Notes under the pieces: model-generated
What the model was told of the DNA's origin: nothing
The model's database searches: none
The model's input: the letters and a program-made list of their open reading frames with translations, nothing else
Program-made: the position numbers and the translations under genes
Shown: positions 3,117-57,519 of the stretch, piece after piece
Layout: every line of letters starts with the position of its first letter
Numbering within the stretch: the first letter of the stretch is position 1
Origin: Trichomonas tenax
Taxonomy: Eukaryota > Parabasalia > Trichomonadida > Trichomonadidae
Assembly: GCA_023091735.1 (NCBI GenBank)
Contig: JALKBU010000073.1
Location: forward strand, 1 to 64,000
Length of the DNA stretch: 64,000 nt
Reading direction: 5' to 3'

Positions 3117-3613
3117 TATCTGAGTTTTACTTTGCAGATTGACAAAGATTCCATATGAAGGTTATGTCACCATTATATCGAAACTACATACTCATTAAAT
3201 ACGTTTTCTGATTGATTATCATCACATATCTCTTACTAAAGTTTGAAATTATCATAGCGAGCATGTTCAGTAACTTCTTTTAAGATTTCGATATCGTTTG
3301 TACAGCCCATTACACTTCCTTCTTTATAAGAATATTGATATATATCATGCCTAGATTTCAACTCCTATTTTTTGCATGTTTCTTTTGATTCGATATGATT
3401 TCATATCTTTTATAGTTATTTTAAGTAAATAATACATGATATTATGGATCAGTAGCTTTTAATGATACCATTGCATTAAATCATAGTCACCTATTGTTGA
3501 TAGATTTAGTGAAAAATGAAAATTGATATTTTTATCGAAGAATAATATTGTCAAGTTGTTCAGCCAAATTTTAGAATGCTTCGAATCTTATCGAATATAA
3601 ATAACATATTCAA
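3117..3613. other. Intergenic, AT-rich
   Basis: No open frame, RNA gene or clear repeat seen. Confidence 0.5.
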
Positions 3614-23443: not shown

Positions 23444-24232
23444 ATGATGGATTACGAATTTCTCGCGCAACTCAACATCGAGTGCCAAAGGCCGCGCGAG
23501 GCATTGGAGAACATGTTTATGCTTATTTCAAACTCATCAAAACTCACAACATCGCAGAAAAATCTTTTAAATTCAGCCGTAAAATATTCTATTGACTCAA
23601 CGAGAACTTCTGTAAAGAAATTAAACAATGTTATAGCTACAGAGCGATCAGCTGGACACGCTGACAACGTCGAAGAACTCTCAAAAATCAAGAGAAACGG
23701 CGTAAATGAAATAACTGAAATTTGCAATCGATGTCTTGATGTTTTGGAGAACAAATTGATACCAGGCAATGCTGATGACCCTGAATCTCTCGTTTATTTC
23801 CAGAAAGTCAGAGGCGATGTTTATCGTTATATTCTGGAAACTTCTCCAGATTCTGAAAACGCACTCAAAAACGCAAGTGATTCATATTTATACGCATATA
23901 CAAAGAGCCAGGAGTATCTTACTCCATGTGTTCCCATTAGATTAGGCGCATTTTTGAATTACGCGGTTTTCAAATACGATCACTTACGCTGTATTGAAGA
24001 AGCGACAGAAATCCTTCAGCAGGCGCTGACGCATTACACTGAAGGCCTCGATAAACTCAGCCAAGATACAAAAGAAGAAGTTTTGAATATTGTAAGAGTT
24101 ATTCAGGATAACATCAGGAAGTGGACTGTTGCGGAGTCAACTGATGACTCTGAACATGAAGAGGAAGAAGAGGAGGAAGAAGATCAACCGGATTCTCCGA
24201 ATAACTATGATTCTGAAGAAGAGGAAGATTAA
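23444..24232 (+). CDS. 14-3-3 protein with acidic C-terminal tail
   Basis: 262 residues from ATG 23444 (a second ATG follows at once). It is a phosphoserine/phosphothreonine-peptide binding adaptor that normally dimerises. The binding-pocket residues are present: Lys47 and Arg54 in VKYSIDSTR, and Arg128-Tyr129 in RGDVYRYILE. PIRLGAFLNYAVFKYD at 164-179 matches the conserved PIRLGLALNFSVF stretch. The N-terminal dimer region is diverged (FLAQLNIECQRPREALENM). Residues 232-262 are an uninterrupted acidic tail with EEEEEEEE, longer than in typical members. Length is close to the usual 245 plus this tail. Cytosolic. Confidence 0.92.
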   Translation: MMDYEFLAQLNIECQRPREALENMFMLISNSSKLTTSQKNLLNSAVKYSIDSTRTSVKKLNNVIATERSAGHADNVEELSKIKRNGVNEITEICNRCLDVLENKLIPGNADDPESLVYFQKVRGDVYRYILETSPDSENALKNASDSYLYAYTKSQEYLTPCVPIRLGAFLNYAVFKYDHLRCIEEATEILQQALTHYTEGLDKLSQDTKEEVLNIVRVIQDNIRKWTVAESTDDSEHEEEEEEEEDQPDSPNNYDSEEEED

Positions 24233-30776: not shown

Positions 30777-30843
30777 TTTTTTATCGTCAAGTTTTCACTT
30801 TTTTGATTTTTTTTCTATTTTGAAATTGTGTTTTTTGGATATG

Positions 30844-31059
30844 CTATGGTATGTCAATTGGAAAATGAACTGGAGGAAGATGGGCGAGCTTATTCAGTGC
30901 TAATGTGAATCCTAAGTTCGCTGCGTTGTGAGATTGAACTAATCTTTTGTTGTTGAGCCACATTCTGAGCCTGAAGTGGTACTCTTCGCCCGTGAATACG
31001 TTTCCTGTCTCCCTCATCCAACTTAGGAACGATTTTTCTTCGTGTTGTTGAATCAACAT
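30844..31059 (-). CDS. Solitary cathepsin-type inhibitor prodomain (I29-like), no protease
   Basis: 71 residues from ATG 31059. It reads HEEKSFLSWMRETGNVFTGE and then RLRMWLNNKRLVQSHN and LGFTLALNKLAHL, which is the trichomonad papain-family propeptide with its ERFNIN-type helix and the GNFD-equivalent end. In full-length proteases the mature domain with the catalytic Cys follows; here the frame stops 10 residues later (30844-30846) and no downstream Cys/His/Asn segments are visible. Either a truncated CLCP gene or a free propeptide-type inhibitor of cysteine proteases. It is divergent in spacing from the membrane protein gene just downstream on the same strand. Confidence 0.7.
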   Translation of the reverse strand: MLIQQHEEKSFLSWMRETGNVFTGEEYHFRLRMWLNNKRLVQSHNAANLGFTLALNKLAHLPPVHFPIDIP

Positions 31060-31317
31060 TGATAAAAAATGAAGTGAATTTTATTCAAACATTTCAATGA
31101 ATATAGGATCTCCATGACCTACAATATACAAAAATCGAACAAAAGTGAGATTAGTTGATTTTATGTCACTTTTGGAATTTTGATTTTGATTGGCAAAGTC
31201 ATTATATATTGGATATCTGATAATTTGGAATTTATGCATCAAATATGTTTTTATTGGGGGTGTTTATATATGAATATGAATCAATAATATTAGGTCAAAC
31301 AATCATAATGAAAAATT

Positions 31318-31569
31318 TCGGGTCTCAGCAGAATTTTGATTGATTCAGATTTAAAAGACACCGGTGGAACTAAATATACCTCAAAATCGAGGTACGCCGG
31401 ATTTTTTCCTATCGTCGCGAAAAATCAGGATTTTATTACGATAGAGAACATTAAACACTCTTTTTTGGAAAATAATGATTATCTGATCCTTGCAATGTGC
31501 GCAAATATCAGAAAGCCCCGAGCCCAAAAGCTGATATTCTTTACAAAGGTCTTTCACATATATATATAG
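31318..31569 (+). pseudogene. Short coding-like fragment, possibly PP2C-type
   Basis: An open frame to TAG 31567-31569. The segment FLENNDYLILAM resembles the DDFLILACDG strand of PP2C phosphatases, preceded at a fitting distance by FITIENI. The metal-binding Asp-Gly is absent and the remainder does not match, so this is at most a remnant. Confidence 0.2.
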
Positions 31570-32937
31570 AATTGTATTTTGTTGATATTTTGATAATGTG
31601 TTTAGTATATGTACTGCTTGTAGTTTCAATGATAATTCACGCTATATAATGTATTTTTTTCTAAAAATGAAATTGAACATTTTTATATAGCGAATATATA
31701 TGTGTGTATGGCATTGTAAGATGTACTATTCAGTGATATAAACATGTTTCCAATGTGTTTTAAAAAAAGAAGTGAGTTCAAGCAATTAAGATTTACAAAA
31801 TTCATCTCAATTTAGATAATATTGGTTTATCAATTGTGTATCTTGAATTTTGATATTATATAAAGTGATTTGTAGAAGTAAACTCAATATATATGAATTT
31901 CTTGACGATTCAATATGTGATTTGGGAGATAAAACGTTGCTAATAATGTTTAAGTTCACATTTCAATATTCACATCTGTTGGATGATAATACTATTAAAA
32001 TATTTTATGCAAATAGTCATTGCAATGTCATGATGTGCTATGATTAAAAGTGACACGTCTTCAATGTTAAAACATCATCATAGAAAGCCCCATGATTGAT
32101 ATCCATCCATATTAACAATGTGTAATGTATTCTATTATATGTGCATAATCTATTCAATATACTTGCGTATTATTCTATCATCTATACGGATATATATATG
32201 CATTGCAAAATTTGTCGACAAATTGTGGGACTTTTTGAACAATGTAAAGTGAATACGTCAGAATGTCAAAAAAATAAAATTGGTTTATTAACATATTTAT
32301 ATGTAGACATTCAAATTTGACTTGATTCATCGAAGAAATAGACATTTTTATTAAGTTTCCAATATAGATCATTTCAAAATTAACGCAATATATTAAGAAA
32401 TACAGTATCTGATACATAAAAACATACTTTTATTGTTAAACTCCTATCAAATGCGTCAAAACGATATTTCAATATTATCAAGCTAATGAAAAAAGAATAT
32501 GAACGACTGCATTTAAGTTCACTTTGTTATGTTGTGCATATATCAGAATAATATGAATTGGAATATAGATGTTTATGATAAAATAGAGCAGATTTAGGCA
32601 ATTATATCATTTGTCAGTGATTTGAAGATCCATAAATGAATGATTGTTTATTCAACTGCATAGCAATCAAAAAATGCTGTAAAATCGCTATGAAAACTTA
32701 GAATATATAAAGAATACTTATATCTTTGAAAATAGCATTCTTCTTATCTCCCTCACATATTACATCAATTTTATATAGGTATTAGGCAAAATTCATGCTT
32801 TTCTCAATAATACGCGATCTTGTAATATAGATTAACGCAAGGATCAGTATATATTGTGCGTATCTAATGTATTTATACTTTATACATAATTTTCATGTTT
32901 GCTACGATCAGAAGTCGATAATTTTTATAAAAAAATA
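31570..32937. other. Gene desert, AT-rich
   Basis: No coding signal above background. Scattered ATATATG runs only. Confidence 0.5.
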
Positions 32938-33035
32938 AAATATCATCAAAAACGAGTAATTTATAGCACAACCTCTCCAGAATTGTGAATATATGGAGAA
33001 TTTGTACCAGAAATTGATCGTTTTTGATGATATTT
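32938..33035. repeat. Foldback with perfect 18-bp arms
   Basis: Positions 32938-32955 and 33018-33035 are exact reverse complements, enclosing 62 bases that contain a smaller TCTCCA/TGGAGA pair. It sits just before the four-hairpin module. Confidence 0.85.
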
Positions 33036-33072
33036 AATAACGGATAATTAGAGATAGTAGATAGCTTCATTT

Positions 33073-33494
33073 ATCTAATAGAATGGCAAACTGATGTTCA
33101 TGGATTATCTGTTTGTCATGCTATTAGACCGCTAAAGCAGTAAATGGAGAACGATAAGTGAAAGATTTCGATTTGTCGCATTTTCTACGATTCTACAAAG
33201 TTGCCGCTTCATCTGGTGTCTCAGAAACTTCAGATAGTCGTAGAAAATGTAGGTTTGTAAATGGAAGCCGAATAATTTAACTCTGATCGAGCCTCAATAG
33301 CATCAACAGTCAACAACCATCTGGAGCGAAGTGCAGCTTCGAATTTCTGGCTTGCTGACCGTTGAGGCTTTGTGGGTGATTGCATTGCAAGAAAATTGAA
33401 GAATTTGTACATCCTTGAACGACAAAACACTCGCGTGGCATTGATTAGAGGGATATCTCCATTGATAACTCTAAAAATCATTGAAAAACGAGTG
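33073..33494. repeat. Four-hairpin module, copy 1
   Basis: Four separate hairpins in order. A is 33073-33127 (19 of 22 pairs). B is 33178-33248 (12 perfect pairs, CATTTTCTACGA). C is 33290-33367 (GCCTCAA/TTGAGGC outside, GTCAaCAA/TTGcTGAC inside, and a CGAAG/CTTCG tip). D is 33426-33494 (ACACTCG/CGAGTGT outside, TTAGAG/CTCTAA inside). The starts are 105, 112 and 136 bases apart. No convincing protein is encoded on either strand. Confidence 0.8.
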
Positions 33495-33821
33495 TCGAAA
33501 GAATGAACATTAAAAATTAACGTGTATTTTTCACAGAAATGTTTTAATCCCTCTTAAGCTATTCCATTCAGATCCATATTTAAATTCGGATCTAATGACT
33601 GATTTAAAATCGTAAAATTATTCGTAAATTCTTGAATTTTTGCAATACTTTATAATTATGATAAAAATGTGAATAAAACTGATTAAGCATTTTTTAGATA
33701 CAAGCAAATTTGGAAAGTGGAAATGATAGCATTAAACTTGCTTAGTGTAGTAAGTTCAATTGTATAATTTATTTGAAAACTACTCAGTTGTACGTTATAA
33801 TTGGTTATCGTTTTTTACGGC

Positions 33822-33888
33822 CAGGAACAGCCTTGACAGTTATTTTACATCGATATTGAATTGAAAATGATCGTTCAGGCTGTTACTG
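33822..33888. repeat. Imperfect hairpin
   Basis: CAGGAACAGCCT near 33822 pairs with AGGCTGTTACTG near 33877 with one mismatch. It lies between the two copies of the four-hairpin module. Confidence 0.65.
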
Positions 33889-33889
33889 T

Positions 33890-35049
33890 CCGAAGCTAAA
33901 GCAGGGGGATGCCGACGATTATTTTTAAACGTAAGCTCATTGTAACTTGTTACGCCATCATTTTCTGCGGTAGTTCACCTAACATAAAATGATGTGCAGT
34001 AACTTTGCAGTCAGCTTACATACACTGCATGCAACAGTTTCACACATTACATTCCACGAATAAGATATCTTCGAAAAAAAAATTGGATTGAGCACAAAAC
34101 TCAATTCAAACCATAGCATTCGCATCATCAAATACCAAATGCACAAGTAAATACGAAACAATGTTCTAATAATTATATTTCGAAATTTAGGTAACATGCA
34201 TTTACACAGTATGAATACAATGATATTCATTGCTGGCTTGTATTTAGCCAGGATGAGACATTTGTTCGATGTCATACTCGATATTTAATATCAAAAATTG
34301 ATAAACGTACACTCATTTTGGCCATAAAGTTCAATTCTCTATCTAACGCGGCACACGCATGTATGCTATCAAGAGAAATTATACTATTCTGCATCTATTT
34401 CTCGTATTTAATAAGTTGCGATATCTGAAGTTTGTCTATAAGCAATTTAAATCATTTTCTGCGCGTTCCATGGTTTAGCCTTACATTCCTTTTGTATCTT
34501 TTGTATGAATAAAGCATAATTTTCCTTAATTTGTTTTTTCAAGTATTTTCAATATTCACAAATACTGTTGTGAATGCAACCAATATATATATATGATCAT
34601 AGTTGTCGTTTTCTAGCATGCATAGTTCATAAAACTGTAGATAAATATAAATGAAAAAATAAAACCTAATATATTCTTATTTTATTGGCATGTATATGTT
34701 ATAATATGATTATATATACTATATCTCAGGTAGTTCCTATTATATAAATGTGTATACTACTGAATGCAACATTATCAAAATAAATACTAATTCTACTGGT
34801 TAAATATTTTACAGAGCTCAGTTTATCCTTAGCCTGTAGGGTGTTCTCAATGAAAACAATGTAATGCACAAAACATGTTATAATATGAATATTTCCTGTG
34901 TAAAAGATATAATATATTTGCACTTTGATCATGAAATATAGCTGCACACTATATTTCATTTAGTAGAGTAGCTGCTTGATAATTCGAGACTCTGGATGTA
35001 AATGTCACAGCTATCGATTTCAAAAGCCGAGATTTGATTCATAGAACGC
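33890..35049. other. Gene desert, AT-rich
   Basis: The minus-strand open frame 34275-33979 has poor coding character. No other feature seen. Confidence 0.45.
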
Positions 35050-35147
35050 AAATCTCGACAGAAATGAACCGTTTCGAGAACAAGCCCTCTAGGAAGTTGT
35101 TGTCCTAGAAGACTTGTGCTCGAAACTGTTCATTTCTGTCGAGATTT
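35050..35147. repeat. 98-nt hairpin with 29-bp near-perfect arms
   Basis: Arms 35050-35078 and 35119-35147 pair at 28 of 29 positions. The interior pairs further (CTAGGA/TCCTAG) around an 8-base loop at about 35095-35102. A third copy of the arm core, CGAGATTTG, lies just upstream at 35023-35031. The size and shape resemble a small-RNA precursor hairpin; it directly precedes the second four-hairpin module. Confidence 0.9.
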
Positions 35148-35187
35148 ACGGATCAGAGTATTAGATGTCGTAAATAACTCTTGCTGC

Positions 35188-35605
35188 CTAATAGAACGAC
35201 AAGCAGGTACCAATCGGCTATCTTCCTGTCATGTTATTAGACAACAAAAGTGCGTAATTCTGATCGATGAACGAAATGTTTGTATCGGTCGTATTTTCTA
35301 CTACTCTCTTAGGTTCGTATGGCATGAAATGTCATAGAAGATACAGAGAGTAATAGAAAATGTAAGTTTAAATTATAACATCGAATTAGCTAGTATGAGC
35401 GAATTTCGAAGACATCAAAGGCCAACATATGACTAGATAAGAAGCTTTTCTTCTTATTTAGCCATTTGTGGGCCTTTGATGTCTTGATTGTGACGAAATT
35501 TGAAGAGAATGGATGAATTCGTGTGCGTTCTCCACTAGTTTTTCATTGGTTGAAGGGATGTCTGTACTGATAGACCCTCAAAATCAATGAAAAATTGGTG
35601 GAGAA
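35188..35605. repeat. Four-hairpin module, copy 2
   Basis: Hairpins in the same order as copy 1. A is 35188-35240. B is 35293-35361 (16 of 17 pairs, ATTTTCTACTACTCTCT). C is 35411-35483 (13 perfect pairs GACATCAAAGGCC plus an inner ATAAGAAG/CTTCTTAT). D is 35528-35605 (TTCTCCAC/GTGGAGAA with a long inner stem). The starts are 105, 118 and 117 bases apart. Linker sequence is shared with copy 1 around hairpin B (TAGAAAATGTA, then GTTT), while stem sequences have changed on both sides together. Confidence 0.8.
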
Positions 35606-35898
35606 AAAACAATAATTATAATAATGTACAAAATATTAAAAATCTCAAAATAACATCTATTATCGATTAGTGTTCTGTATTTATCAATTTACTATCAATA
35701 ACTTCTTATTTCAAATGTCTTTTAGAGTAATTTTTTTAAAAATAGTTTGAGCAATTAAGAGAAATTCACAAATTCAATTATTTATGGATATTGGCGATAT
35801 TTAAAATCAATAATTAAGCATTAATTTAAATATAGCAGCTATTTTGATGATTTGGTCTGATTTTTAAAGTTTTGTAAGTTATAAAAATTTCAAATGCG

Positions 35899-35968
35899 TT
35901 CTCTACGAGTTCTTCACTGATTTTGAGGGATATCAATGAAGATTTCCCTCTAGCCAGTGAAGAACTAT
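35899..35968. repeat. Extra hairpin of type D
   Basis: AGTTCTTCACTG at 35908-35919 pairs perfectly with 35955-35966, and GAGGGA with TCCCTC inside. The GCGTTCTC prefix and following bases match hairpin D of copy 2, so this is a solo unit of that hairpin. Confidence 0.75.
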
Positions 35969-38425
35969 TTGTTTCTCGTTATAAAATTAATTAATTCTTC
36001 GAGATTCTCAAATTTAGCGTGCAAAGAATCATCATTATTTTTGGGAGAATAACACACAGAGCTTATGTGTGAACACTTGGAATACTTTTTTTGTCAAAAA
36101 AAGCTAAAAAAAAGCAAAAAGCAGATTTGTGATTAGATTTACCTATTTATCATCGACAACAACATATTTTACGTTAAAAGAATGCTATACAATGGAAATA
36201 TAATATATTATAATGAGTAAAGCACATCATGGAAAATCAATGTTTTTGATGCAAGATATATCTAATATTTTAATGAAATATAGACTTTGTTAGCTAATTC
36301 TTTAATATATCATGCACAACAGGATTATGTACATTGAGGTTCAATAACTTCGCAAAAAGTTAATCCAGTGAGCTAAAAAACGAGTTTCGCCGACTTTGCA
36401 GATCAATTTTAGACAAGCCTTTTCTTCATTCTGTTGATTTTAGCGGAATTACTTGATTTAGATCCAGTTTTTCAGAGTGAATACAGAAGTTAATCACTTG
36501 AATTGAAGTGTAGCTGTTTTTACTTATTTTTAAAGATTGATTTTCCAGATTTACTTTTTAAAGTGTGCAGAATACATCTAATAGCGCAATATCACCAATG
36601 AATGTACAAAGCAAATAGTTATTAAGTGTAAAAAGCACACAGACACTTCTATGTCGTGAGAAATTGACATAATGTTAATTTATATCCGAAATATTGATCA
36701 CGTTTCATTCGATGCAGAAAGGTGTTCTATGTATCAAGTATTATATTATCACATGCATCACAAGGATAATATGTATTGTTACCTAATTGAAATCTAATTA
36801 AACATAGGTTTAGGCCTGTAGATTCAGGTTAATGCTCTCATTCTTCTTGACATTTTATATAAAAAGTTTAATTTTTATTTGAATATCGAGCGTTTAGAAA
36901 TACAACACAAGCACAATACGAACATAAAAGATATAGAAATAATGATTATATGTAAAATCAAGTCATATCACAGCTTTAGATTCTAGACTTCAATCAAATC
37001 ACTTAAAGCATATGACATTCCATCCAATTCCTAGACAATGCATCATATCCACATATACGCATTAATAATATACTAATTCTATTTGCGTTTTACTAAATAA
37101 TGAATCAATAAATAATTTATATCCTTCTCACTTGTTTTAAATTCATCTATCTCTTTTGATTATGTTTATAAATATGATGTACACAGTTATATACTATTCA
37201 GGATCTCAATATATCTGCTTCGCAATCATTTGATAATTCTCATTAAACTCGACTTGATTTGTTAATGAAGAACACAGTGAATAACAATAGCTACATTTGT
37301 AAGCTAGCTTATCACCTATTTATACATTCAAATCACAAGGTTCTAGCTTGATATTCTTCACAAATCATATTAAAAATATACAATTGATACTGATATTCAA
37401 ATATGCTGCGCCTTCCTCAAAAAGAAACAATTGTCAAAAAAATATTTTGACATTTTGTCAAATAATTTAGTTACATGACATTTTGTTCGAGAAAACGACA
37501 AAATTTTGTCAAATAGGTTGTTATTTTTGTATTTTTGCTATAGAGGTATAATTATGCATTCAATAATCAACAATATGAAATTGAAAAAGTTTGTACCGTC
37601 CTTTTCAATAGAAAAACCGAAAACGTAATTTTTGTTTCATATAAATGTTACTTTTGAGAACCACAATTTCGATTTTCTCAACACCCAAACAAAAATGTAA
37701 ACAACAAGAATTCAACATTTTTGAGAAGACAATAGTCGTTATTTCATTGTGAGGTTTACACGCAAATTTCAATTTAACCATTCAAAATTTTTTGACCTTT
37801 GATAATGATTTTCTCAATATTTGTAATCGATTAAACTCAATTTTTTTTTCGCGACCGATTTTCAGAATTATTCTCTCATACTTTATCTGCAGATATGGCT
37901 CCAATACCGTATTCTAATATTAAGATATCTAAGGAAATCATTTTATGAATTGTAGTAATTTTGAATTTAGTGTATCTCTGATCTCTACATCACATAAATG
38001 TTGTAGATTAAATTTTAAGGGAGTACTGAAATGACGAAATAATTTGAGAGAATCTCACAGAATAATTCAATGAGTTATCTCAAATTTCAGTACTTCCTTT
38101 TACTCAGCAGTTTACAATTTTTCATATTCATTTTTCCCGTAAATTGCTTTAATATTTTTTTTTCATCCAAACCTCCATTTCATAAAACAGTATATTTATC
38201 ATATAATTTTATGAAAATATTTTTCAGAGTTCGAACAAATTTTTCTTTAATAAACACTCAAAATATATGATTTGAGCATATTTCAAAAATACAATTCAAT
38301 CGATTTCATCCGGTAGAATTATTCAATTTTAAATCTTTCTCATATGTTCCGATTACTTTGCTGATCTATTTTCTCAGTTTTTGAAAAATTTTGTAAACTT
38401 ATCAAAATATTTCTTAATATAATCA
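35969..38425. other. Gene desert with one foldback
   Basis: No gene seen. Positions 37437-37520 hold repeated TTTTGTCAAA/TTTGACAAAA words. A foldback at 38020-38097 pairs GGGAGTACTGAAAT with ATTTCAGTACTTCC and, inside, TTTGAGA with TCTCAAA. The plus open frame at 38070-38270 is T-rich and starts inside that foldback. Confidence 0.5.
38020..38097. repeat. Foldback upstream of the mucin-like gene
   Basis: Outer arms of about 13 bp (AGTACTGAAAT) and inner arms TTGAGA/TCTCAA, with a bulge of about 11 bases on the left arm. Confidence 0.7.
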
Positions 38426-40471
38426 ATGTTTTCTTTATTAGTTTCTTTCGCAGCTGGAGTTATAAACGGAGCGACATCTGGAACTCTGACTGTGACAAAT
38501 ACCTATTTCGTTAACCAAACAGACAGATGCATAAATACGGACCAATCTGCGGCATTAACGATTTCAGAAGTTACGTTTTTCCAATGCACATATAACTACG
38601 CACCATGTATTAACTCCCTTGGATCCGGATATACTAATATTCAGAAAGTTTGTGCTTCATTTTGCTTCGCTTCGAACGGAATTAGCTTTATGAGGCAATT
38701 AAACAGCCAATTGTACATGGCATACAGTTCCTGCACACTCTGCGGTAACGGTGGCGGCTCAGCGGACCAAATTATACTTGAATCTTCAAGTGGTTCAAAT
38801 ATGCAATATTTAAACTGCTCCAGCTGCAAACCGATGTACGCCGTTACGAACGCCATGTATACGTCACAGTCAGTTAAGTATTCCAATTTCATCAACAACA
38901 CACACACAACACAAGCATTATTCGTTAAGGGAGGAAATACAGAGTGCAACTATAATATCTTCCATAAGAACAAAGGTATCGGCTTATTTATTGAAGGATT
39001 TGGAAGTTTCTACGTTAGAAATTGCTATTTCACAATTAACGAAGCAAACGACATTTTCGCGAAATCCTCTACGGTATACTTAGAAGGATGCAACTTCTGG
39101 GACATGAAAACGGCAGTAGAATCAGCTTCTATCATACTTAACGGAAATGAAAATTATATTTACGGCTCAGGATACCCAGTTGACAATTTTGGATCAAATC
39201 CAAACTGGGGTAACATCAATAACAGGTGTGCTTATGTTCCTTTCACAGCACCAACATGGCAAGGTTTACCAATCCCAACAACACCTCCAAAGTCTGCAAA
39301 CCCAACGCCATATGACACACCTTCCACAACACCTTCCACAACACCAGTCATAACTCCATCTACAACACCGTCGACAACTCCGTCAACTACTCCAAGTACA
39401 ACACCATCAACAACACCATGTGATACACCATCAGATACTCCTTCAACAACACCATCGACGACTCCATATGACACTCCATCTACCACTCCAAGTACTACGC
39501 CGTCTACTACACCCAGCACTACTCCTAGTACCACTCCATTGATTACTCCTTTCGATACTCCATCAACAACCCCATCGACTACACCAAGTACAACACCGTC
39601 AACGACTCCAGTAGACACTCCATCCACAACTCCTTCTACTACTCCATCTACAACACCTTTTCAGACACCAGTAGACACACCCTCTACAACACCATCCACA
39701 ACGCCGTCCACAACCCCTTCAACAACGCCATCGACGACGCCATCCACAACACCGTCGACAACGCCTTCTACAACACCAGTTGATACACCAATGACAACAC
39801 CATCAACTACTCCATACATAACACCATCAGAGACACCTTCCACAACACCAGAAACTACGCCATTTGAATCTCCAGTTAACACCCCACAAACAACTCTTGC
39901 AACAACACCTCTCGATACACCAAAGACTACGCCAGCAACAACACCGGCTGTTACACCAGTTGAGACACCGGTCACAACATTGCACGCGACAATGACTCCA
40001 GGAACAACACCACATTTCACACCATATCAGACTCCTTCTGATACATTGAATGCAAAGCTTCTTGGATGGGAAGATCCAAAGAATGACATTTCTCCATTAT
40101 CATGGGTCGGAGTTGGCGCTTTAATCATTGCTATTTTCGCTATTGTTGCAACGGTTTTCATTTGCTTGAGGAGAAGACCAAAAATTGTCGTCCACAATAT
40201 CGAAGGTGAAGATGACAATGACTCAACAATTTATGAGTACGAAGAAGAGGAAGAGGAAACACACGAAGTCAATGAAGAGAATGAAGAATTTGTTTTATTC
40301 AGTGATAGAGAAGAGTTCGAACAAGAACCAAATGAAGTTTATGTTGGCCAATATAGCCACGAAAAAACTCCCGACATCGTCTTTTCAGATGATGACCAAA
40401 TCAACTTAGCTAACTTCTCTGCTCGTTGCCAAGAGCTAAAGAAGAGCAGCATTAGTAACTTTATAATTTAA
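38426..40471 (+). CDS. Type I surface protein: beta-helix head, TTP mucin-like stalk, membrane anchor
   Basis: 681 residues from ATG 38426. The first 15 residues (MFSLLVSFAAGVING) form a signal peptide. Residues 20-265 are beta-helix repeats with Cys and N-glycosylation sites (LTVTNTYFVNQTDRCINTDQ, VRNCYFTINEANDIF). Residues 285-535 are a Thr/Pro/Ser stalk of TPSTTP-type units with occasional TPxDTP, ideal for dense O-glycosylation. A span at 560-582 (VGVGALIIAIFAIVATVFI) precedes RRRPK and an acidic cytosolic tail with YEYEEEEEE and EQEPNEVYVGQY. It is probably an adhesin or glycocalyx protein. The stop is in a TAAA context. It is intact, unlike most related genes here. Confidence 0.88.
   Translation: MFSLLVSFAAGVINGATSGTLTVTNTYFVNQTDRCINTDQSAALTISEVTFFQCTYNYAPCINSLGSGYTNIQKVCASFCFASNGISFMRQLNSQLYMAYSSCTLCGNGGGSADQIILESSSGSNMQYLNCSSCKPMYAVTNAMYTSQSVKYSNFINNTHTTQALFVKGGNTECNYNIFHKNKGIGLFIEGFGSFYVRNCYFTINEANDIFAKSSTVYLEGCNFWDMKTAVESASIILNGNENYIYGSGYPVDNFGSNPNWGNINNRCAYVPFTAPTWQGLPIPTTPPKSANPTPYDTPSTTPSTTPVITPSTTPSTTPSTTPSTTPSTTPCDTPSDTPSTTPSTTPYDTPSTTPSTTPSTTPSTTPSTTPLITPFDTPSTTPSTTPSTTPSTTPVDTPSTTPSTTPSTTPFQTPVDTPSTTPSTTPSTTPSTTPSTTPSTTPSTTPSTTPVDTPMTTPSTTPYITPSETPSTTPETTPFESPVNTPQTTLATTPLDTPKTTPATTPAVTPVETPVTTLHATMTPGTTPHFTPYQTPSDTLNAKLLGWEDPKNDISPLSWVGVGALIIAIFAIVATVFICLRRRPKIVVHNIEGEDDNDSTIYEYEEEEEETHEVNEENEEFVLFSDREEFEQEPNEVYVGQYSHEKTPDIVFSDDDQINLANFSARCQELKKSSISNFII
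39310..39890 (+). repeat. Minisatellite encoding TTP units
   Basis: Degenerate 9- to 12-base units (ACACCATCA / ACTCCATCT and variants) in one phase. Third bases vary freely while Thr, Pro and Ser are kept, which shows selection on the protein. Confidence 0.85.
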
Positions 40472-45713: not shown

Positions 45714-46760
45714 TTATATACTGAATGTAGTATTTAATATCAAAATTAACGTATTCAATCTAAGATTTGTTCGACAAACACTACAAACAATAAAATCGGA
45801 AGCTAATGTGATTTTGACAAATCCATTCCCATATTGTGTGGATGTGTTACCTTTCAGCAAAATAGTATCAAAGAAAACATATCCGGAATAGTGATTTGGT
45901 TGTCCTGTGTGGATGATATTATTCGATTGAGATTGTTTTGAAATTGCATCACATTGAGGATGTCCTGATATGAATGAAGAAGCGGAACTTCCAACACTAA
46001 CTCTACAATCTATAGAAGAGCCACCTCCACCACCATAATATCCTCCGCCGGATGCTGATCCCCAACAATCTATTTCAGAACTTGGAGAACCTCCAATTCC
46101 AAATTTTCCATTTTCACCATTCTTTAGTGAACTGTCACTTGAAGTCGAACCAATTCCTGGCTGAGTCTGTTTTGCACCAATAGAATTTGTAAGAGTTCCA
46201 GTTGGTGTGCATGTTGGATTATCCCCATATGTTCCATTATCGCCTATGATTGCGCCTCCATGTGGACCTTGAATGAATCCCATATGGTATTGAGATCCAG
46301 TCCCACCTGCAGCAACCATTATTCGCGACATAAGAGATGCAAAATTATCCCATTCACCAGAAATAGTTCTCATATCTGTTGCTCCACCACCGGAGCCCGC
46401 ATAATTTCTTTGGCAATTGCTACCGTGGCCTCCTCCATTAAAAGTTCGAGGCCCATTTGCATCACCTTTCTCGCCTAAATAAAAGAAGAATGTTTCAGAA
46501 TGAGCAATGCCAATTGCACCGCTTGAGTAGGCGCCACGGCCGCCGTTGTTTGAACCTATTACAATTCCGCCGCCTGATGCACCAATCATCTCAATGCGAT
46601 ATATTTCCGGCTTAAAAATAACTTTGTAAGGACTACATTGAGAGCCTAAAGTGCAAGGATAATCTAATGTAACGCTCCTTCCATCACTACTCCACATGAT
46701 ACTTGTATTACCACGAGATGGATATAGTAAATCGATTGATACAAATTTCTTAATATTCAT
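45714..46760 (-). CDS. ALK-type glycine-rich protein
   Basis: 348 residues from ATG 46760. The motif SVTLDYPCTLGSQCSPY near residue 30 and then YRIEMIGASGGG mark the trichomonad family related to the glycine-rich region of ALK/LTK receptors. Gly clusters follow (GGGHGSNC, GSGGGATDMR, GGGYYGGGGGSS) with a final GYVFFDTILLKG strand. There is no signal peptide and the usual C-terminal membrane span and cytosolic tail are missing: it ends about 30 residues after the last domain strand. Convergent with the LRR gene; the two ends are 36 bases apart. Possibly truncated. Confidence 0.8.
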   Translation of the reverse strand: MNIKKFVSIDLLYPSRGNTSIMWSSDGRSVTLDYPCTLGSQCSPYKVIFKPEIYRIEMIGASGGGIVIGSNNGGRGAYSSGAIGIAHSETFFFYLGEKGDANGPRTFNGGGHGSNCQRNYAGSGGGATDMRTISGEWDNFASLMSRIMVAAGGTGSQYHMGFIQGPHGGAIIGDNGTYGDNPTCTPTGTLTNSIGAKQTQPGIGSTSSDSSLKNGENGKFGIGGSPSSEIDCWGSASGGGYYGGGGGSSIDCRVSVGSSASSFISGHPQCDAISKQSQSNNIIHTGQPNHYSGYVFFDTILLKGNTSTQYGNGFVKITLASDFIVCSVCRTNLRLNTLILILNTTFSI

Positions 46761-46900: not shown

Positions 46901-47512
46901 TTACCGAAATTTGTCACGAAAAAGTGACATTATCTGACATGTAAACACAAATATTTGACAAATAAATATTTACGTGGCGTGTGATTATAAATGATTATTG
47001 GAAGAATGATATCCTATATTTGTTTAAATTTACTTTGAAAAGAAAAATTAAGTGCTTGATTGGCACTGGTATCCAAAATGCTAGCAATCCAGTCCACAGT
47101 TCTTCCTTTCAGAAGCATTCTGTAAAGTAAATCGCTGATTATTTCGAAAATCGAGTCTGAAAGGAAGAACTGTGGACCGGATTGCTAGTACCTTGGCTAC
47201 AAGTCCCAATCAAGCATTTAATTTTGCTCTTCAGAGGCATTCTGAAGTGGAAATCTTTGATTTCTTAATGATGGCGTATGAAAGGAAGATCGGTGAGTTT
47301 AGCTACTAACATGCGTGGTTCCTGTGTCAATGCAGTCCCCAGTTCTTCCCGTCAGACGCGATTTTGAAATAAAAACTAATACATAATTTGAACGATTATA
47401 GGACTTTACATGTCAAAATATTAATATTTTGACAAATAAACGGGAGATCACAATAACTTTACATGTCAGATAAAATTACTTTTTATGTCACTTTTTCATT
47501 GTAACTTTCAGT
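46901..47512. mobile_element. TIR element of about 0.6 kb carrying hairpin repeats
   Basis: The left end (46901-46966) and right end (about 47455-47512) are imperfect inverted repeats sharing AAAAAGTGACAT and TATCTGACATGTAAA; the right copy has about 12 extra bases between these words. Between them are TTTGACAAATAAA words, the 69-bp foldback at 47044-47225 and partial copies of its arms. The GACTTTACATGTCAAAA word at 47402-47418 also occurs in the element at 22659-23005, so the two are related. No coding capacity. Confidence 0.65.
47044..47225. repeat. Long foldback with 69-bp arms
   Basis: Arms 47044-47112 and 47157-47225 are reverse complements with roughly ten mismatches over 69 positions, including a perfect 21-base run at the inner end. 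The 44-base loop starts AAGCATTCTG. The loop plus right-arm start is repeated in direct orientation from 47230 (AGAGGCATTCTG, then GAAAGGAAGA) and the left-arm end again near 47333-47356, giving a period of about 121. Confidence 0.9.
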
Positions 47513-47716: not shown

Positions 47717-47846
47717 AATAGTCATATGACTAAACTTCTTTTTTTAATCTAGGTACTCCTCTCAATTTTTTCAAGGGGTCCCCTCAATATTGTGAGGAAC
47801 ACGCCCGTAGAGTGCCTAGATTAAAAAATGTAGTTTATGAATATTA
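47717..47846. repeat. Foldback with about 37-bp arms
   Basis: TTTTTTAATCTAGG(T)ACTC at about 47740-47758 pairs with GAGTGCCTAGATTAAAAAA at 47810-47828, and pairing extends outward (TAAACT/AGTTTA). A GGGGTCCCC palindrome lies near the tip. It sits just upstream of the broken lipase gene. Confidence 0.85.
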
Positions 47847-49134: not shown

Positions 49135-52100
49135 TTACTTATCATAATTAAATTCGGATATATTAAAAGAAAGCTTTTCGTTGATCTTCAAAATTGCAGA
49201 TTTGAAATATCTGTAAACTTTCGAACCAACAACATTAGAAATTATTGAGCCAGTTTTGCTGACTTCGATAATATCAACACTTTCGAGTGGAGACTGCTGG
49301 ATTGATTCTATTTCTTGTCCTGTAATCCTGTAAACCTTAACTGCAAACTGATATGTTGAAGGAACGCCAATAGCGACGCATTCGATGCAAGAAACCAAAA
49401 CGCATTTTCGTGCCGAGATGATTTTTTCTGTTTGAATCTCAGAGATAACTGTGCCAATGGAATCATAAACGACAATCTTCGATTCTCCGACGCATGCAAC
49501 ACATCCACTCTTGTAGACAAACAATCCATTTGTAACATCAACAGATCTGATCGATGTTATAAAGTCTCCTTCAATAGTTGCAAAAATAAGAGTGTTATCA
49601 ACATCAACACTGCAAATAAGTCCGGAATCAACTGACATTGAGAGTTTCTTGATCTCGCAGGTATGATATGTCATTGTCTTAATAAATGCACATTCTGGTA
49701 ATGACCAAATATGGACATCGCCAATATCGCCACCAGTCAATAAGATCCTGTTTCCAGCGATCGAAGCTGCTGTAACATATGAAGTTCTGTGTTGAACATA
49801 TGTTAATCTGTTCTCTACGAAGTTCTGAACAACAACGAATGGCTCTGGATAATGCGCATCCTTTTCTGACAGATACACTGCGATATTTAATGGTTGGGAA
49901 ACGCCGACAATCTTCCTTGAAACCAAAAATCCGCTATATATGCGTTTCTTGTAAAATCCTTGTCCATTTAATGTTATTCCGAATTGCTTCTTGAAATAAA
50001 TGATCTGGAAGATGCCACTATTCATATTATTGCGTTCTGTTGAATCAAGAATTTTCTCTCTTGACTTGTGGCTGCTGTTGAAAAGCCTTGGAATCGGGCA
50101 CCAAACTGTTTCAAAAGCATGCAAAGAATCATCATTATCATGCAAAAATTCTCCGTACATTTCTTTGTTGCCTCTTGCTGTGCCGTACATCATGTCAAAC
50201 CATTTGTGGATCGACTTGCTTGAATTGAGCTCTAAGAATAGCTTGTGTATCTCAACAAAGTTAACAGCATTACAATACTTGTTTGAAGGATCGATGTAAG
50301 CCCAATCAGGAAGTTTAACGTCTGCATTCTCGCTAGGATCATAGTGTTTCCATAATGGCTTTTGATATCTATTTAACAAGAATTGATAAAATGAGAAATA
50401 TTCTGGTAGGCATTCGGTCTTATTTTGAGTACTATTATGAACATGCTGGAAAATTCTTTCCTTTACTTCAAAATCTCTTTGGAATGCAAGATATGATTCA
50501 TAAAATGGAGTCAATCTTATGAATGTAACAAGAACTTGGTAAATACTCATATATCCATAATTATCAATCGTTCCGTGATCAAGGAAATTTTTAACTCTGT
50601 TTTGATCTATGTTTGCATAACCAAGATTTCTTGGTCGCAATTTATTGAAATCATCAAATATCCATGGGAAGAACGGATAAGCTGAAAAGTTGTTGTATGA
50701 TCTGCCACACAACATATTGAGATAAGTTAAATACTCAAATGTTGATATTTCTCCATTGGTCCATTTGTCCATAATCTTTAGATCATCAACGAGTTTTGTA
50801 ATATCATTGAGATATTTTCCTTGAAGAATAACTGTTTCTTTGTTTTCATATTCACGCGAATTAAGATTTCTGAGACTTCGGAATAAATCAAATTTGTTAT
50901 TTATGACAGGAATTCGATCGTGTGATTGATGAGACCAGATTTCATTGATATACCAAACAAATGAATCACGCTGCTCCTTGCTTGGATGAATAATAAATAA
51001 GGAAGGCTTGAAAGCACTGTAAATTTCGCAGGCTAAATCTTGATTGAAATATTTAACATTCATAATGAATTCAATCTCATCAATACGAAGATCTTCATAA
51101 AAATGACAATTTGTATTAGAAACGCCTTCAAACGTAATTGTGAATTTATCGAAGTTAATATTTTGGTCACCAAAGAATGGATCGGCGAAGATTCCTTTAA
51201 TTGTGCATACGTATGCACCCTGTTTTGGAATTGGAGGATTTGTCTCAACTGAAGCAATAAATTTTGAATAATCCACTTCATTGATGGATCTTCCACCTTT
51301 GCGATTTGTTAATGATGAAACTGAAAATGTTGGCTTGATATTGAAATCATGCATGCATGAACCATTGGTCTTCATGATTAACTCAACATCATTGATTTGG
51401 CTTCGATGGAATTCTTGACCTCTTGAAGACTTTGAAGCAGTATATTCATTATGGTATTTATCGTAGGCATTATAAAATTGTTGTTGTAGATATGATTCAG
51501 CTATTGGTTTATCACTTCCTAATGAATGATCAATCGTTAAATTCGGCTTTGCCTTATTAATCTCTTGCGATAATTCATTGATGTATTTTTCTTCATTCAT
51601 CAATGTATTAAATACAGCAAATGGTTCGAAGTTTGGATTGTAATATCTCGATAATTTTGTAGGTAATTCTAAATCGATAATTCTTGTGAAATTAGAAATG
51701 CACTGCAATTGAATGCCTCTTGTACAAAACTGCATTTTCTCAACAATTATATCACGATATACAGCAACTTCTTCAATTCTAGTTGAGATTTGTGAAAATT
51801 CATAAAGGAGATCAATACACAAATAGATCATTTCGAAAGATTGATTGAAAATCATGACCTGTTTGCCATCATATAAATCGATACTATCAAGAAGCAATTT
51901 GATCAAAGATTCATCTCTTGTGGAATACTTTTTAATTGTAACCTGAATGTCGAAATTTTGGACCTCAAGGAAGGGATTGGTTAAAAACTTCTTAATCGGT
52001 TTGCCAGAAAGCTGAGTATTGCGCATTATCAATGGAATAGCAACGGATAATAATTTATCAAGATGTCCCTTTATCGATTCTTTTGGAATGTTCTTGAGTA

Positions 52101-55100
52101 TCTCAACTTCAAAATTATACCAATCAAGTGATAACTCTTTGTTATTTTCAGCAATGCTGAATAGCTCAATGCACCTAAAGACTTTGATAATTGAATCAAT
52201 CTTGTACTTCAAAATCTCAATGAAAGGCTTTGTTGTATAATATCTCGAAACTTTCATGAAATTGAGTAAGAAGTAATACCAATTATCACATTTGCTGAAG
52301 TTCTCGAGAATTAAATCATCCTTGAGATATTGGCAAATCCAATCAATTGCAGTTCTTGGATCCTCTCTATTCATGAATGTCTTTAATAGAAGAGGAATTG
52401 TAAGAGGAGACCTAATCAATCTGTCTTTGTAGGCATCATCAATAAACTTTCCATCTGGAGCATATGACATGATTAATGCAGTTGTGATACAGATTTGTGA
52501 CAACTCTCTCTGATACTTGTATTCATTAAATTTAGCGAAAAGATCAATAAAGTTCTTTAAGCAAATGTTTTGCACATCAGTATCCTCGAAAGTAATTAAG
52601 AACATCCATGGCAAAAAGCATAATTGGATGTTGTCCGTGAATTTCGTGTACAGGCTAAATTCTAATTGGAAATTATCTGTGAATGCATGTGTGTTCATTA
52701 ATATTGGTTGAATTTCTTGCAATTTGATATTACTGTACCACATTGGATATGTAATAATGAATGATTTGTCGACATCAAAACTTGGATCAACGATCAATAA
52801 TGTTGCAAAATCTATTGCTTTTTCTAACTTTTTCTCTAAAGCTCCAGCAAAATATGTTATCACTGCCTCTCTGTTGAAGAACAGACGCTTATTTTTGTTA
52901 TAAGCAACTATAACATAATTCTCAAAGAAATTTGGGAAATCTTTGGCAATCATTTCATATGTGAAATCAATGTTCAAGAAGAAAGCAATTGCAAATTTAT
53001 CGGCAACTTTTGTATCCAATAAAGCAAGAGCAGCATCCAAAAAGTCTTCATTGACGAACTCTAATTTGAGTGTTGTCAAATACGATGCATAATAATTGAT
53101 GTAGTCTTTTCTGTTGAAATCAATGCAAAGGTCTTCAAGATTGTCTAAAAGTAATTTGAAGATCTTCAATAAAATTACTGCGATGTTTTCCTTGTCTTTT
53201 AATAGAAATGCATCATCTCTTTGACAATATTCTTGAACCATTGGTACCAAAGTGAATAAATTATTTGCGCTCCTGAGAATGTCGATGATCGAATTTTGGG
53301 CAGCAGAAACGGTTCCATTAAACTCAGCTGTAGCTCCGTTATCAAGAGGATCAGTGTGGATGATCTTTTCTCCATACACGAAAAGCGGAGAATAGTTCTT
53401 AACAATGGCTTCATTTTTTGTGATTTTGATCTCTGAGATAAAGCCATCTAAAGATGCATCAAGGAAGTTTGTGGCGAATCCAATTTTTTGCTGTGATTTT
53501 CCAACTTTAAAATCAAAAACTGCCATGTAACCATCAATAGTCAAGCTGAAATTATCATTTGCGAAATCAATTGATACATCAAGCCATTTGCCAATGCACA
53601 TTGGAGAAATAAGAAATGTTTCTTTATCGCTTGGTGGTATGAACTGTGCTTCGAATTCAGTTGAGTTGATCTTGACTATTGCTTTGATATCATATGTTTT
53701 CGGAGATTTCTGGAGCTTAATGCTAAGAGATTGAGAATCAGATATCTGTAAGTAGAAAAATGGATCCATGAACTTTTCGTTAACTTGATTGAACTTGATG
53801 CTGAATTTAATCGATGTATCTGGCGCGATTATTGGTTTATTAACATCATTGCTTTCATCAATGATTCCTGTTCTGAATTTAGACATTGCAAAAGACCATC
53901 TATCTGATTCCATTAACTGGCATGCAATCATGTTTTTGAACATTTCGAAAATTCTATGTGTAAACCTATATTGAGCTTTTTCGAGAGTTTTGAACAGATT
54001 ATGGAACATTGCTGTAGTAAATTGTGCTGTACAAAGCCGTTCCATGAAAGATAATGTTTCTTCAAGAAGAGGGTCAGAACCATCTTTGCATGACAGAAAA
54101 TTATCAAGAGCAAATTTGAAGCCGCCATGAACGATCAACTTTTCCGCGTTTGCTTTGTTTTGAGCAAGCTTATTAAATTCTTTTGTGACAAGAAATTCTT
54201 TGTGTGTATCTTGAGCTCTTTGAGCAAGAAGCTGAATAACAGCTGGAACGTAAATAATTGGAGCTGTATTTTTTTCAAGCGAAACTTCAGCACAAAGGAA
54301 CTTAAGTAAGGGCTCAACAAGATCGATTTGTTGACTACAGTTGATTAGTTCCTTGATATCATCTGAAGTAAGCTTCCTAACATAGATGCAATACTGAGAT
54401 CCATTCATTGCCCATTTCGTCAAAAGCTGAATGATTTCCAGCTCTATATTCTTCTTGCGAGCTTGTTCAATAGCAACCTTTACAACGATTTCTTGATTGA
54501 ATGTGACATTATAGCTATCCTGGATTATAGATATCATATTGTTTGTGATCTGCATATCTTCACACTGAAATCCTTTGATGATTGTATCATTCATGATGTT
54601 GTTTAGAGCAAAAGACTTCTTGACTATATTTATGAATGTCGCTGGATTGTCCATCATTCTTTTTTCAACAAGTTGAACAATTGGATATTCATTAGATGGT
54701 GAATTAAGCGGAATTACGATTTCTGGATAAGAAAGTATAATATATCTAATGTAGTCGAATATGCAGTCGTTCGTTTTAGCTAATTCTGCCATTTTCATCA
54801 AAAGAGTTCCTGAAGATCGAACAAATTCGATGATTTTACCATTGCTTGGATTTATGTAATCGAACAGAAGTGGAGATAAATGATAGAAAACAATCTCGTC
54901 ATCTAAGATTGAAGCGATCTTGTTTGGTATACCTGAACGAGGATCTAAATAGAAATTATTGATTAAATACAGCAAATAATCGTGTGCAGATGTGTTGTAT
55001 GTATTGGAGAAAAAGTTTTTGTTAATCAATGAACTGATTCCATCATACAATATAAGATTTTCCGATTTTGATGGCCAAATCAAGTATGAAAACATCAAAA

Positions 55101-56696: not shown

Positions 56697-57519
56697 ACTG
56701 AAGAGCTTGCGCCAATACATGTTGTACCTGGATATTATCGAATTTAGCTATGGGGAGCACAAGGAGGCAATCGAAATGTCTCAAACTCAATGAATGCGAA
56801 TGGAACATATTCAGAGATAATTTATGAATCAACAAAAGAAGGATCACTATTTGCCTATGTTGAAAAAATGAGAAAATGTTCCAATGAATTTAATCTCACC
56901 ACCCAAATGTATCGAAGGTGGTAGCAATAGCCTTGGTATCGAAAAGCCTATGTCATGCATTGTTGGAGAAGCAACTTTTGTTTTACAATCAAACAATACA
57001 GAAGATGTTCTCGTTGTTGCAAATGCAGGTGGTGGGTCAGGTTATTATTCATCAGGCTTGGTTCATAGAATGGGATTTGGTGCAACAAAGATATCTCCTG
57101 GTAAAGTAGGAGGTTATTTTGATGAAGAAAACCATAAATACCAATCATGTAATGCTTCAGATGGATCAAGATTTAAAGGAGGCAATGCATGTTCTACTGC
57201 ATACGGATCATCGGGCGGGGTTGGATATGAGTATTTTGGTGGTGGCGGTGGAACGAATTCGATTGGTGGGTGTGATGGAAGTAGTTACGCAAAGCCTCCA
57301 TATGCTTATAAACTCCTCAACCGAAACGAAGAATTTTTATCTCCTGAAGGTTTCGCGGAAGTTGAGCACCCAGGAGATGGATACATTCGAATTACTTACT
57401 CCATGACATCTGAAATGTTTGGTATCCTGTTCAAAAACAAATGCACTGTATGTTATCATGCTTCAAAAACTTACAAAAACATCATTTTATTTTCCGTTTT
57501 CATATCGATAGGAAAATAG
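56697..57519 (+). pseudogene. ALK-type glycine-rich protein, inactivated
   Basis: Positions 56697-56880 read VVPGYYRI, a TAG (near 56743), then LWGAQGGNRNVSNSMNANG, the start of the glycine-rich domain with a nonsense codon inside the diagnostic strand. Near 56880 the frame changes and continues from 56884 to 57519: PPKCIEGGSNSLG, VANAGGGSGYYSSG, GSSGGVGYEYFGGGGG and PGDGYIRITYS. A short hydrophobic end (IILFSVFISIG) follows CTVCYH. Same family as 45714-46760. Two lesions make it a pseudogene. Confidence 0.7.

What the first reader, a model, noticed from the sequence alone, without database searches (positions are those of the whole stretch)
33073..35605. Duplicated four-hairpin module with preserved pairing but changed stems
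Seen: hairpins A-B-C-D occur in the same order at 33073-33494 and 35188-35605, with starts 105/112/136 and 105/118/117 bases apart. Stem B is CATTTTCTACGA-type in one and ATTTTCTACTACTCTCT-type in the other, each fully or almost fully self-paired. Stems C share position, not sequence. Linkers near B are alike. Inference: both arms changing together suggests selection for structure (an RNA or DNA cruciform element), or arm-to-arm gene conversion. I know no named trichomonad element of this form.
Basis: partly seen in the sequence, partly recalled or inferred. Interest (0 to 1): 0.8.

Follow-up and report, generated by a model that had tools for sequence, protein, structure and literature searches.

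The report
Hairpin-packed non-coding jumping DNA elements
The two similar hairpin clusters are parts of two families of non-coding jumping DNA that recur across this trichomonad-like protist's genome; their matched stems are real, but the evidence points to the DNA rewriting one arm from the other rather than to a working RNA.

Summary
Both modules are members of a dispersed non-coding repeat: one hairpin-arm pattern has 134 matches in the 53-Mb genome (a few are both arms of one hairpin) and none for the reversed control. They are not a local duplication. They belong to two element families lying side by side. The outer family has ~68-bp terminal inverted repeats and, in some copies, 10-bp target-site duplications; a sister family shows 11 bp in the one copy with both ends. 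This fits non-autonomous, foldback-like Mutator-like (MULE) elements. No transposase was found in the copies examined, so superfamily membership is inferred.

Across 74 copies in 15 families, stems covary beyond a tree-based null (84% paired against 58-62%). But fixed G·T and A·C mismatches are about equal (86 against 79), so no folded one-strand RNA is indicated. Resident copies decay nearly neutrally, with a weak excess of arm-restoring changes, and some loops are inverted: DNA-level footprints of template switching or arm exchange. The resident rate looks too low to explain all covariation, so selection on DNA hairpins in mobile lineages stays open.

The parts
31389..37411 (+). Outer element (family 1), MULE-like by its ends; right end truncated in the window; interrupted by or joined to the second element at 33804-36045
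   Evidence: Blocks of 31439-33803, 36046-36418 and 36420-37411 recur in differing combinations in L010-L021, mostly at 86-97% identity. In copies such as L015 about 79 bp and an inverted terminal repeat follow the block that ends at 37411; a self-comparison of 30800-38600 found no such repeat in the window
31389..31456 (+). Terminal inverted repeat TIR1 (left end)
   Evidence: 40 places in the genome, the window included, of 45 candidates; inverted pairs on C733, C1172, C1028, C640; exact 10-bp target duplications flush with both ends on C733 and C1028
31457..32886 (+). Left arm, non-coding
   Evidence: no ORF of 100 aa or more from a start codon between 30776 and 38426; inner part 64% identical to the arm of the C661 family
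32887..33512 (+). Hairpin module 1 (H0, A, B, C, D)
   Evidence: edges near 32887 and 33490-33512 recur in other contexts
32938..33036 (+).
   Evidence: z -9.3
33073..33128 (+). Hairpin A of module 1
   Evidence: z -4.6
33179..33249 (+). Hairpin B of module 1
   Evidence: z -4.2
33290..33376 (+). Hairpin C of module 1
   Evidence: z -2.5
33427..33494 (+). Hairpin D of module 1 (weak alone)
   Evidence: z -1.1
33513..33803 (+). Inner end of the family-1 arm; in L013, L015 and L019 its end lies 18 bp from an oppositely oriented module cut at 33372
33804..36045 (+). Second element (family 2): left part 33818-34899, module 2, and the stretch up to 36017; nested in or joined to the outer element, probably truncated on the right
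   Evidence: C166 (L002/L040), L045, L048, L049 at 82-96% by block; the left part recurs at 40 scored places; a copy on C1358 carries the left part at both ends in inverted orientation
34924..35644 (+). Hairpin module 2, with a small extra hairpin at about 34930-34960
   Evidence: many matches begin at 34924; their right edges vary, many between about 35605 and 35644
35047..35151 (+). Hairpin H0 of module 2
   Evidence: z -13.3
35188..35241 (+). Hairpin A of module 2 (weak alone)
   Evidence: z -0.1; homologous to a stem that covaries
35292..35362 (+). Hairpin B of module 2
   Evidence: z -5.2
35409..35485 (+). Hairpin C of module 2; loop inverted relative to 11 of the other families
   Evidence: z -11.2
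35527..35607 (+). Hairpin D of module 2
   Evidence: z -5.95
35859..36009 (-). Partial inverted copy of the D end of a module
   Evidence: 35536-35644 against 35967-35859, 72%
36046..37411 (+). Right-hand blocks of the outer element (36046-36418 and 36419-37411)
   Evidence: 36046-36418 in L014; 36419-37411 whole or in part in L011-L019, L021, L071, L072

Best explanation
The two modules are the inner, hairpin-bearing arms of two related families of non-coding, MULE-like foldback DNA transposons in a trichomonad-like genome. Shown: dispersed copies, terminal inverted repeats, 10-11 bp target duplications in some copies, inverted pairs of modules, and families of copies that differ by a few per cent. 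Inferred: a Mutator-type transposase supplied from elsewhere moves them. The five hairpins keep their arms matched mainly by a DNA-level process: at a short inverted repeat one arm is rewritten from the other, or the stem-loop is flipped, by template switching or arm exchange. It acts weakly in resident copies and, by inference, more strongly in the lineages that spread. The hairpins need not be read as RNA.
For: Element: TIR1 at 40 scored places with four inverted pairs. Exact 10-bp duplications flush at both ends of C733 and C1028; the same 10 bp on both sides of the L014 copy, but 37 bp beyond the right repeat; an 11-bp duplication on L025 of the C661 family. No ORF of 100 aa or more from a start codon in the window between 30776 and 38426; the longest stop-to-stop frame inside the C1172 element is 156 codons with no Pfam match. 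Families are clusters with short tips on long stems. Covariation: 74 copies, 169 stem pairs, 84.0% paired and 59 covarying pairs, against means of 57.5-62.0% and 25-35 for four starting copies in 60 simulations without pairing, whose maxima were 65.3% and 50; covariation score 0.240 against 0.149 shuffled and at most 0.083 slid. DNA level: fixed states in 10 families are G·T 86, A·C 79; within-family one-sided changes are G·T 151, A·C 161. Five of 343 loops scored are in the minority orientation of their own family, plus hairpin D of L037 seen by eye; in L064 hairpin A a 19-nt apical stretch is exactly inverted. Restoring one-sided changes 99 against 62.9 expected, double changes that keep pairing 10 against 5.0, breaking changes 446 against 514.3. 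Compensated changes cluster with their neighbours (10 of 10 draws above all 200 permutations; z 4.2 after position control, one draw). In several families the two inverted modules of one element differ as much as different families do (tree), as expected if only short-range arms are corrected.
Against: Resident copies show only a weak correction signal. My rough estimate, not a computed result, is a few-fold to ten-fold below what the between-family pairing needs, so the process must be stronger in active lineages or be helped by selection; that step is inferred. G·T is not equal to A·C everywhere: hairpin B has 30 against 16 fixed states and H0 7 against 17, and a raw count of all cells over a wider set of predicted pairs gave 1325 against 1031. 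No loop inversion was seen in hairpin B. The two modules of the C1172 element are 98% identical, against the short-range argument. Neighbour clustering is modest and family pairs are not independent. No transposase lies in the copies examined, and C1172 and C640 show no target duplication. Stems diverge slightly less than linkers between families (0.280 against 0.332), which leaves room for constraint.
Confidence: 0.6

Rival explanations
1. The hairpins are DNA structures needed in cis by the mobile copies (cruciform or single-strand hairpins recognised during transposition or replication). Selection in the spreading lineage keeps them paired, and copies decay once inserted.
For: Pairing is kept between families but nearly neutral within them. 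G·T about equals A·C overall, as expected if both strands' hairpins count. The hairpins keep their order in the copies aligned (family 4 copies lack H0), and the module is better conserved than the adjoining arm in the one pair compared (72.6% against 63.8%).
Against: Stems evolve nearly as fast as linkers (0.280 against 0.332), which is weak constraint. Loop inversions and arm restorations show a mutational route that needs no selection.
Confidence: 0.25
2. The module is a transcribed structured RNA or a cluster of small-RNA precursors maintained by selection on RNA folding.
For: Covariation is strong; single hairpins resemble miRNA precursors in size, and three of the four Rfam matches listed are miRNA families, all below threshold. 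Hairpin B alone has more G·T than A·C (30 against 16). Earlier studies looked for miRNAs in T. vaginalis (cited in PMC7845603, passage).
Against: No overall excess of G·U over A·C at fixed or recent changes. Resident copies are not constrained. Loops invert. No Rfam family reaches its gathering score in 31000-38500. T. vaginalis small RNAs in that paper are ~34 nt and its Argonautes PIWI-like (PMC7845603, passages).
Confidence: 0.09
3. Chance hairpins in AT-rich DNA or assembly artefacts.
For: Composition is AT-rich (32% G+C); two of ten window hairpins are weak alone.
Against: Shuffles give few or none; 134 pattern matches on both strands against 0 for the reversed control; copies on many contigs.
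Confidence: 0.01

Closest known systems
TvMULE families of Trichomonas vaginalis (PMC2725143, passages read)
   Same: Mutator-like elements in a trichomonad; target duplications of 10-14 bp, mostly 11, in the part of the table shown; nested arrangements reported
   Different: TvMULEs carry a transposase and lack long terminal inverted repeats; ours are non-coding with a ~68-bp terminal repeat and hairpin modules. The word 'hairpin' does not occur in that paper's main text
Tm1, a Mutator/Foldback element family of root-knot nematodes (PMC3169594, passages read)
   Same: Non-coding members with MULE-type target duplications (mostly 9 bp) and foldback-like composite inverted repeats
   Different: Tm1 repeats are tandem 13-15 bp units, and some members carry a single histone hairpin; ours carry an ordered set of five different hairpins with co-varying stems
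Template-switch homogenisation and spacer inversion at short inverted repeats (PMC8604942, passages; PMC8794818, abstract and passages)
   Same: Arm homogenisation and loop inversion as DNA-level footprints; both seen here
   Different: Those cases are in yeast genes and in RNA genes, where compensation together with loop inversion is reported as extremely rare; here the loops look freer to invert and the process runs in a transposon family
Galileo (P superfamily) foldback-like elements (PMC4168063, search listing only)
   Same: Long, variable, recombining inverted arms (recalled)
   Different: Different superfamily; no conserved hairpin series that I know of (recalled)

Membership tests
Mutator-like (MULE) DNA transposon | Target-site duplication of about 8-11 bp | tested here: met
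   4 of 6 two-ended copies examined: 10 bp on C733 and C1028, 10 bp on L014 with a 37-bp offset at the right end, 11 bp on L025; none found on C1172 and C640
Mutator-like (MULE) DNA transposon | Terminal inverted repeats | tested here: met
   ~68-bp TIR1 inverted at both ends of C733, C1172, C1028, C640; palindromic ~50-bp terminal repeat at both ends of L025. The family-2 ends were only partly mapped
Mutator-like (MULE) DNA transposon | MULE transposase (PF10551) or demonstrable mobilisation by one | tested here: inconclusive
   11 PF10551 places in the genome; two fetched with flanks carry neither TIR1 nor modules; none of the 11 lies inside the four TIR1 pairs by coordinates; mobilisation not testable
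Foldback-type element | Long inverted arms able to pair with each other | tested here: met
   inverted module pairs in L003, L004, L007, L015, L050, L060 and others; many loci with 1.5-kb flanks show one module only
Structured non-coding RNA | Covariation beyond a phylogenetic null | tested here: met
   (60 simulations)
Structured non-coding RNA | G·U tolerated more than A·C in stems of the transcribed strand | tested here: not met
   86 against 79 fixed states over five hairpins, but 30 against 16 in hairpin B and 7 against 17 in H0; 151 against 161 one-sided changes. No positive control run
Structured non-coding RNA / miRNA cluster | Transcription and processing | not testable with these tools
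   no RNA data held
Known Rfam family | Score at or above the gathering threshold | tested here: not met
   best match 41.8 bits against 105 needed (window 31000-38500)

The most novel reading that the evidence does not exclude
The ordered five-hairpin module is a cis-acting folded-DNA signal that MULE-like elements need to move, so that transposition itself selects, or rewrites, the hairpins each time a lineage bursts. That would be structure-directed mobility in a eukaryotic cut-and-paste element, in loose analogy with folded recombination sites such as attC (recalled).
Probability: 0.2. Interest if true: 0.8.

Novelty: new variant of a known kind. Interest (0 to 1): 0.5.

Why it matters
Strong stem covariation is widely read as proof of a functional RNA. 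Here it comes with about equal G·U and A·C overall and with inverted loops, in non-coding transposon copies that decay almost neutrally. That makes this family a candidate counter-example and a test bed: many copies of the same five hairpins in one genome allow rates of arm correction and loop inversion to be measured and set against selection. It also suggests a hairpin-bearing, foldback-like form of MULE-type elements in trichomonads.

Tried and rejected
RNAalifold on the gapped 74-row alignment returned no structure; I folded the column-majority sequence instead. I first took the flanks of the C661 family for insertion sites; they proved to be two outer arms in either order. I considered that a MULE transposase locus might carry the modules; two fetched loci do not. 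A claim of no selection at all was dropped, because the resident correction rate looks too low to explain the between-family pairing. The Rfam miRNA-like matches were rejected as sub-threshold. Statements about print rest on the paper searches: no listed title or shown abstract start describes such a trichomonad element; only part of the hits of several searches was listed, and subscription papers are mostly not held. Rows dropped: hits spanning less than 300 query bases, overlapping hits and duplicates were left out of the 74; the tool alignment used 44 of the 74; families of one or two copies were left out of the fixed-state count (10 of 15 families used). On checking the draft I lowered the best explanation from 0.62 to 0.60 and raised the RNA rival from 0.08 to 0.09, because the uneven G·T/A·C counts of hairpins B and H0 and the 98% identity of the C1172 modules had been left out.

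Full report
What is there. The window (G000:C1250:1-64000) belongs to a 53.4-Mb genome in 1528 contigs. Its 14-3-3 protein is 71% identical to that of Trichomonas vaginalis and 81% to an unnamed database protein, which suggests a trichomonad other than that species. A further hairpin (H0) precedes A in both copies, so the module has five hairpins; module 2 has an additional small one in front (34930-34960). Strong foldings are far denser here than in shuffled DNA, though two of the ten window hairpins are not remarkable alone.

They are dispersed repeats. Searches of the genome with either module gave 40 scored places out of 77, 212 and 399 candidates, so the lists are lower bounds. A pattern for the 3' arm of hairpin A with up to one mismatch has 71 forward and 63 reverse matches and none for the reversed control; in at least four cases among those listed both arms of one hairpin match, so modules are somewhat fewer than 134. 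The 74 module copies that I could cut from fetched loci fall into 15 families at 89% identity. The tree has short tips under long family stems, the shape of transposition bursts.

They sit in transposons. The window's module 1 lies in an element whose left end is a ~68-bp terminal repeat at 31389, found at 40 scored places. On C733, C1172, C1028 and C640 the same repeat closes the other end in inverted orientation. C733 and C1028 are flanked by exact 10-bp duplications; C1172 and C640 are not. The L014 copy has the same 10 bp on both sides, though on the right it lies 37 bp beyond the repeat. A second family (C661, C710 and others) has different ends, a ~50-bp palindromic repeat, and an 11-bp duplication on the one copy with both ends in hand. 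Duplications of 10-11 bp with such repeats fit Mutator-like elements; TvMULEs of T. vaginalis have 10-14 bp (PMC2725143, passages). I found no coding part: the window has no ORF of 100 aa or more from a start codon between 30776 and 38426, the longest stop-to-stop frames inside the C1172 and C733 elements are 156 and 82 codons, the former without a Pfam match, and none of 11 PF10551 places lies in the four TIR1 pairs. Modules often come as inverted pairs, or as one against two, inside an element (L003, L004, L007, L015, L050, L060), and central parts occur in both orientations relative to the outer arms. The window's module 2 belongs to another family (33818-36017) that lies between two blocks of the outer element. 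Whether this is a nested insertion or a recombined composite I cannot tell, because 33803 is also an inner junction in other copies.

Covariation is real. With 74 copies and 169 stem pairs, 84.0% of cells pair and 59 pairs carry two Watson-Crick types differing on both sides. Sixty simulations along the tree without any pairing constraint gave mean pairing of 57.5-62.0% (largest 65.3%) and 25-35 such pairs (largest 50); of double differences between families 60% are Watson-Crick on both sides, against 17-19% (largest 24%). The counting tool on 44 copies agrees: score 0.240 against 0.149 shuffled and at most 0.083 slid; but the measure 'further pair types' did not exceed the shuffles (394 of 500 reached it), and 8 of 500 shuffles reached the observed number of pairs changed on both sides. 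So hairpin structure has been kept while the family diversified.

But not, on the whole, as an RNA would keep it. In a transcribed stem, G·U is tolerated and A·C is not (established; in RNA genes 78.5% of two-step compensations involve G-U, PMC8794818, passage). Here the two are about equal: fixed states in 10 families with at least three copies are 1158 Watson-Crick, 86 G·T, 79 A·C and 91 other; within-family one-sided changes are 151 and 161; between families 27,683 and 26,653 (non-independent). The balance is uneven by hairpin: B has 30 G·T against 16 A·C, H0 7 against 17; a raw count of all cells over a wider set of predicted pairs gave 1325 against 1031. I ran no positive control of this test on a known RNA.

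Resident copies against spreading lineages. Within families stems change like linkers (0.062 and 0.056 per site), and double changes are near chance (26 against 19.1 expected; 10 of them paired). Between families double changes exceed expectation (38,916 against 23,282) and 66% are paired. A leave-one-out count with a substitution matrix from the linkers finds a weak correction in resident copies: 99 one-sided restorations against 62.9 expected, 10 pairing-keeping double changes against 5.0, and 446 breaks against 514.3.

Direct DNA-level footprints. Loops occur in both orientations relative to their stems. Of 343 loops scored, five are in the minority orientation of their own family: hairpin H0 in families 0 and 6, hairpin A in families 0 and 5, hairpin C in family 8; none in B or D. 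Hairpin D of L037, which the trimmed alignment does not cover, is inverted by eye. Between families, hairpin C of families 7 and 10 is inverted against 11 other families. In L064 a 19-nt apical stretch of hairpin A is exactly inverted, and in L049 the H0 loop is inverted while a neighbouring mismatch of its sisters is paired. Such arm homogenisation and spacer inversion are known products of template switching at short inverted repeats (PMC8604942, passages). Compensated changes cluster along stems (z 4.2 after position control in one draw), modestly. In several families the two inverted modules of one element are as far apart as different families, as if only short-range arms were corrected; but in the C1172 element of family 1 the two modules are 98% identical.

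What it most likely means. The hairpins are short inverted repeats in transposon arms, kept matched by DNA-level rewriting of one arm from the other. My rough rate argument (inference, not a computed result) is that the resident rate is a few-fold to ten-fold too low to explain the pairing kept between families. Either the process is stronger when elements are active, or selection for DNA hairpins in mobile copies adds to it. I put the first at 0.60 and the second at 0.25 as main cause; a functional RNA at 0.09.

Compared with the known. TvMULEs and the Mutator/Foldback family Tm1 (PMC3169594, passages) are the nearest relatives in kind; neither is reported in the passages I read to carry an ordered series of five hairpins. 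Membership in Mutator rests on duplication length and terminal repeats; the transposase test is inconclusive. Seven paper searches listed no description of such elements in trichomonads.

Noticed in passing
window 3106-3877: A repeat 91-95% identical to stretches beside or overlapping the start of MULE transposase frames on C383 and C1441 (L076, L075): probably a remnant of a coding MULE of another family.
   Followed up: partly
window 47731-47838 and 47080-47190: Strong hairpins outside the finding; the first recurs at 89% identity inside the left part of the C733 element, so it may be another small dispersed palindrome.
   Followed up: no
L069 about 7520-7569, L070 about 5735-5784 and relatives: The terminal repeat of the C661 family is itself an almost perfect ~34-bp palindrome; the element's outer arms occur in two types that swap sides.
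   Followed up: partly
window 45714-46760 and 56884-57519: Two genes with the ALK/LTK glycine-rich domain near a BEACH-domain protein (49135-56205), a kinesin, a DENN protein and an ankyrin-repeat protein; a 14-3-3 protein lies at 23444-24232.
   Followed up: no
window 35044-35152: Sub-threshold Rfam match to a miRNA precursor family (41.8 bits, 105 needed; E 1.5e-6), an example of how a long palindrome can mimic a miRNA.
   Followed up: no
L050, L051, L057, L060, L061, L064: A family with three modules per element, one facing two in tandem, the inner of the two lacking H0.
   Followed up: no
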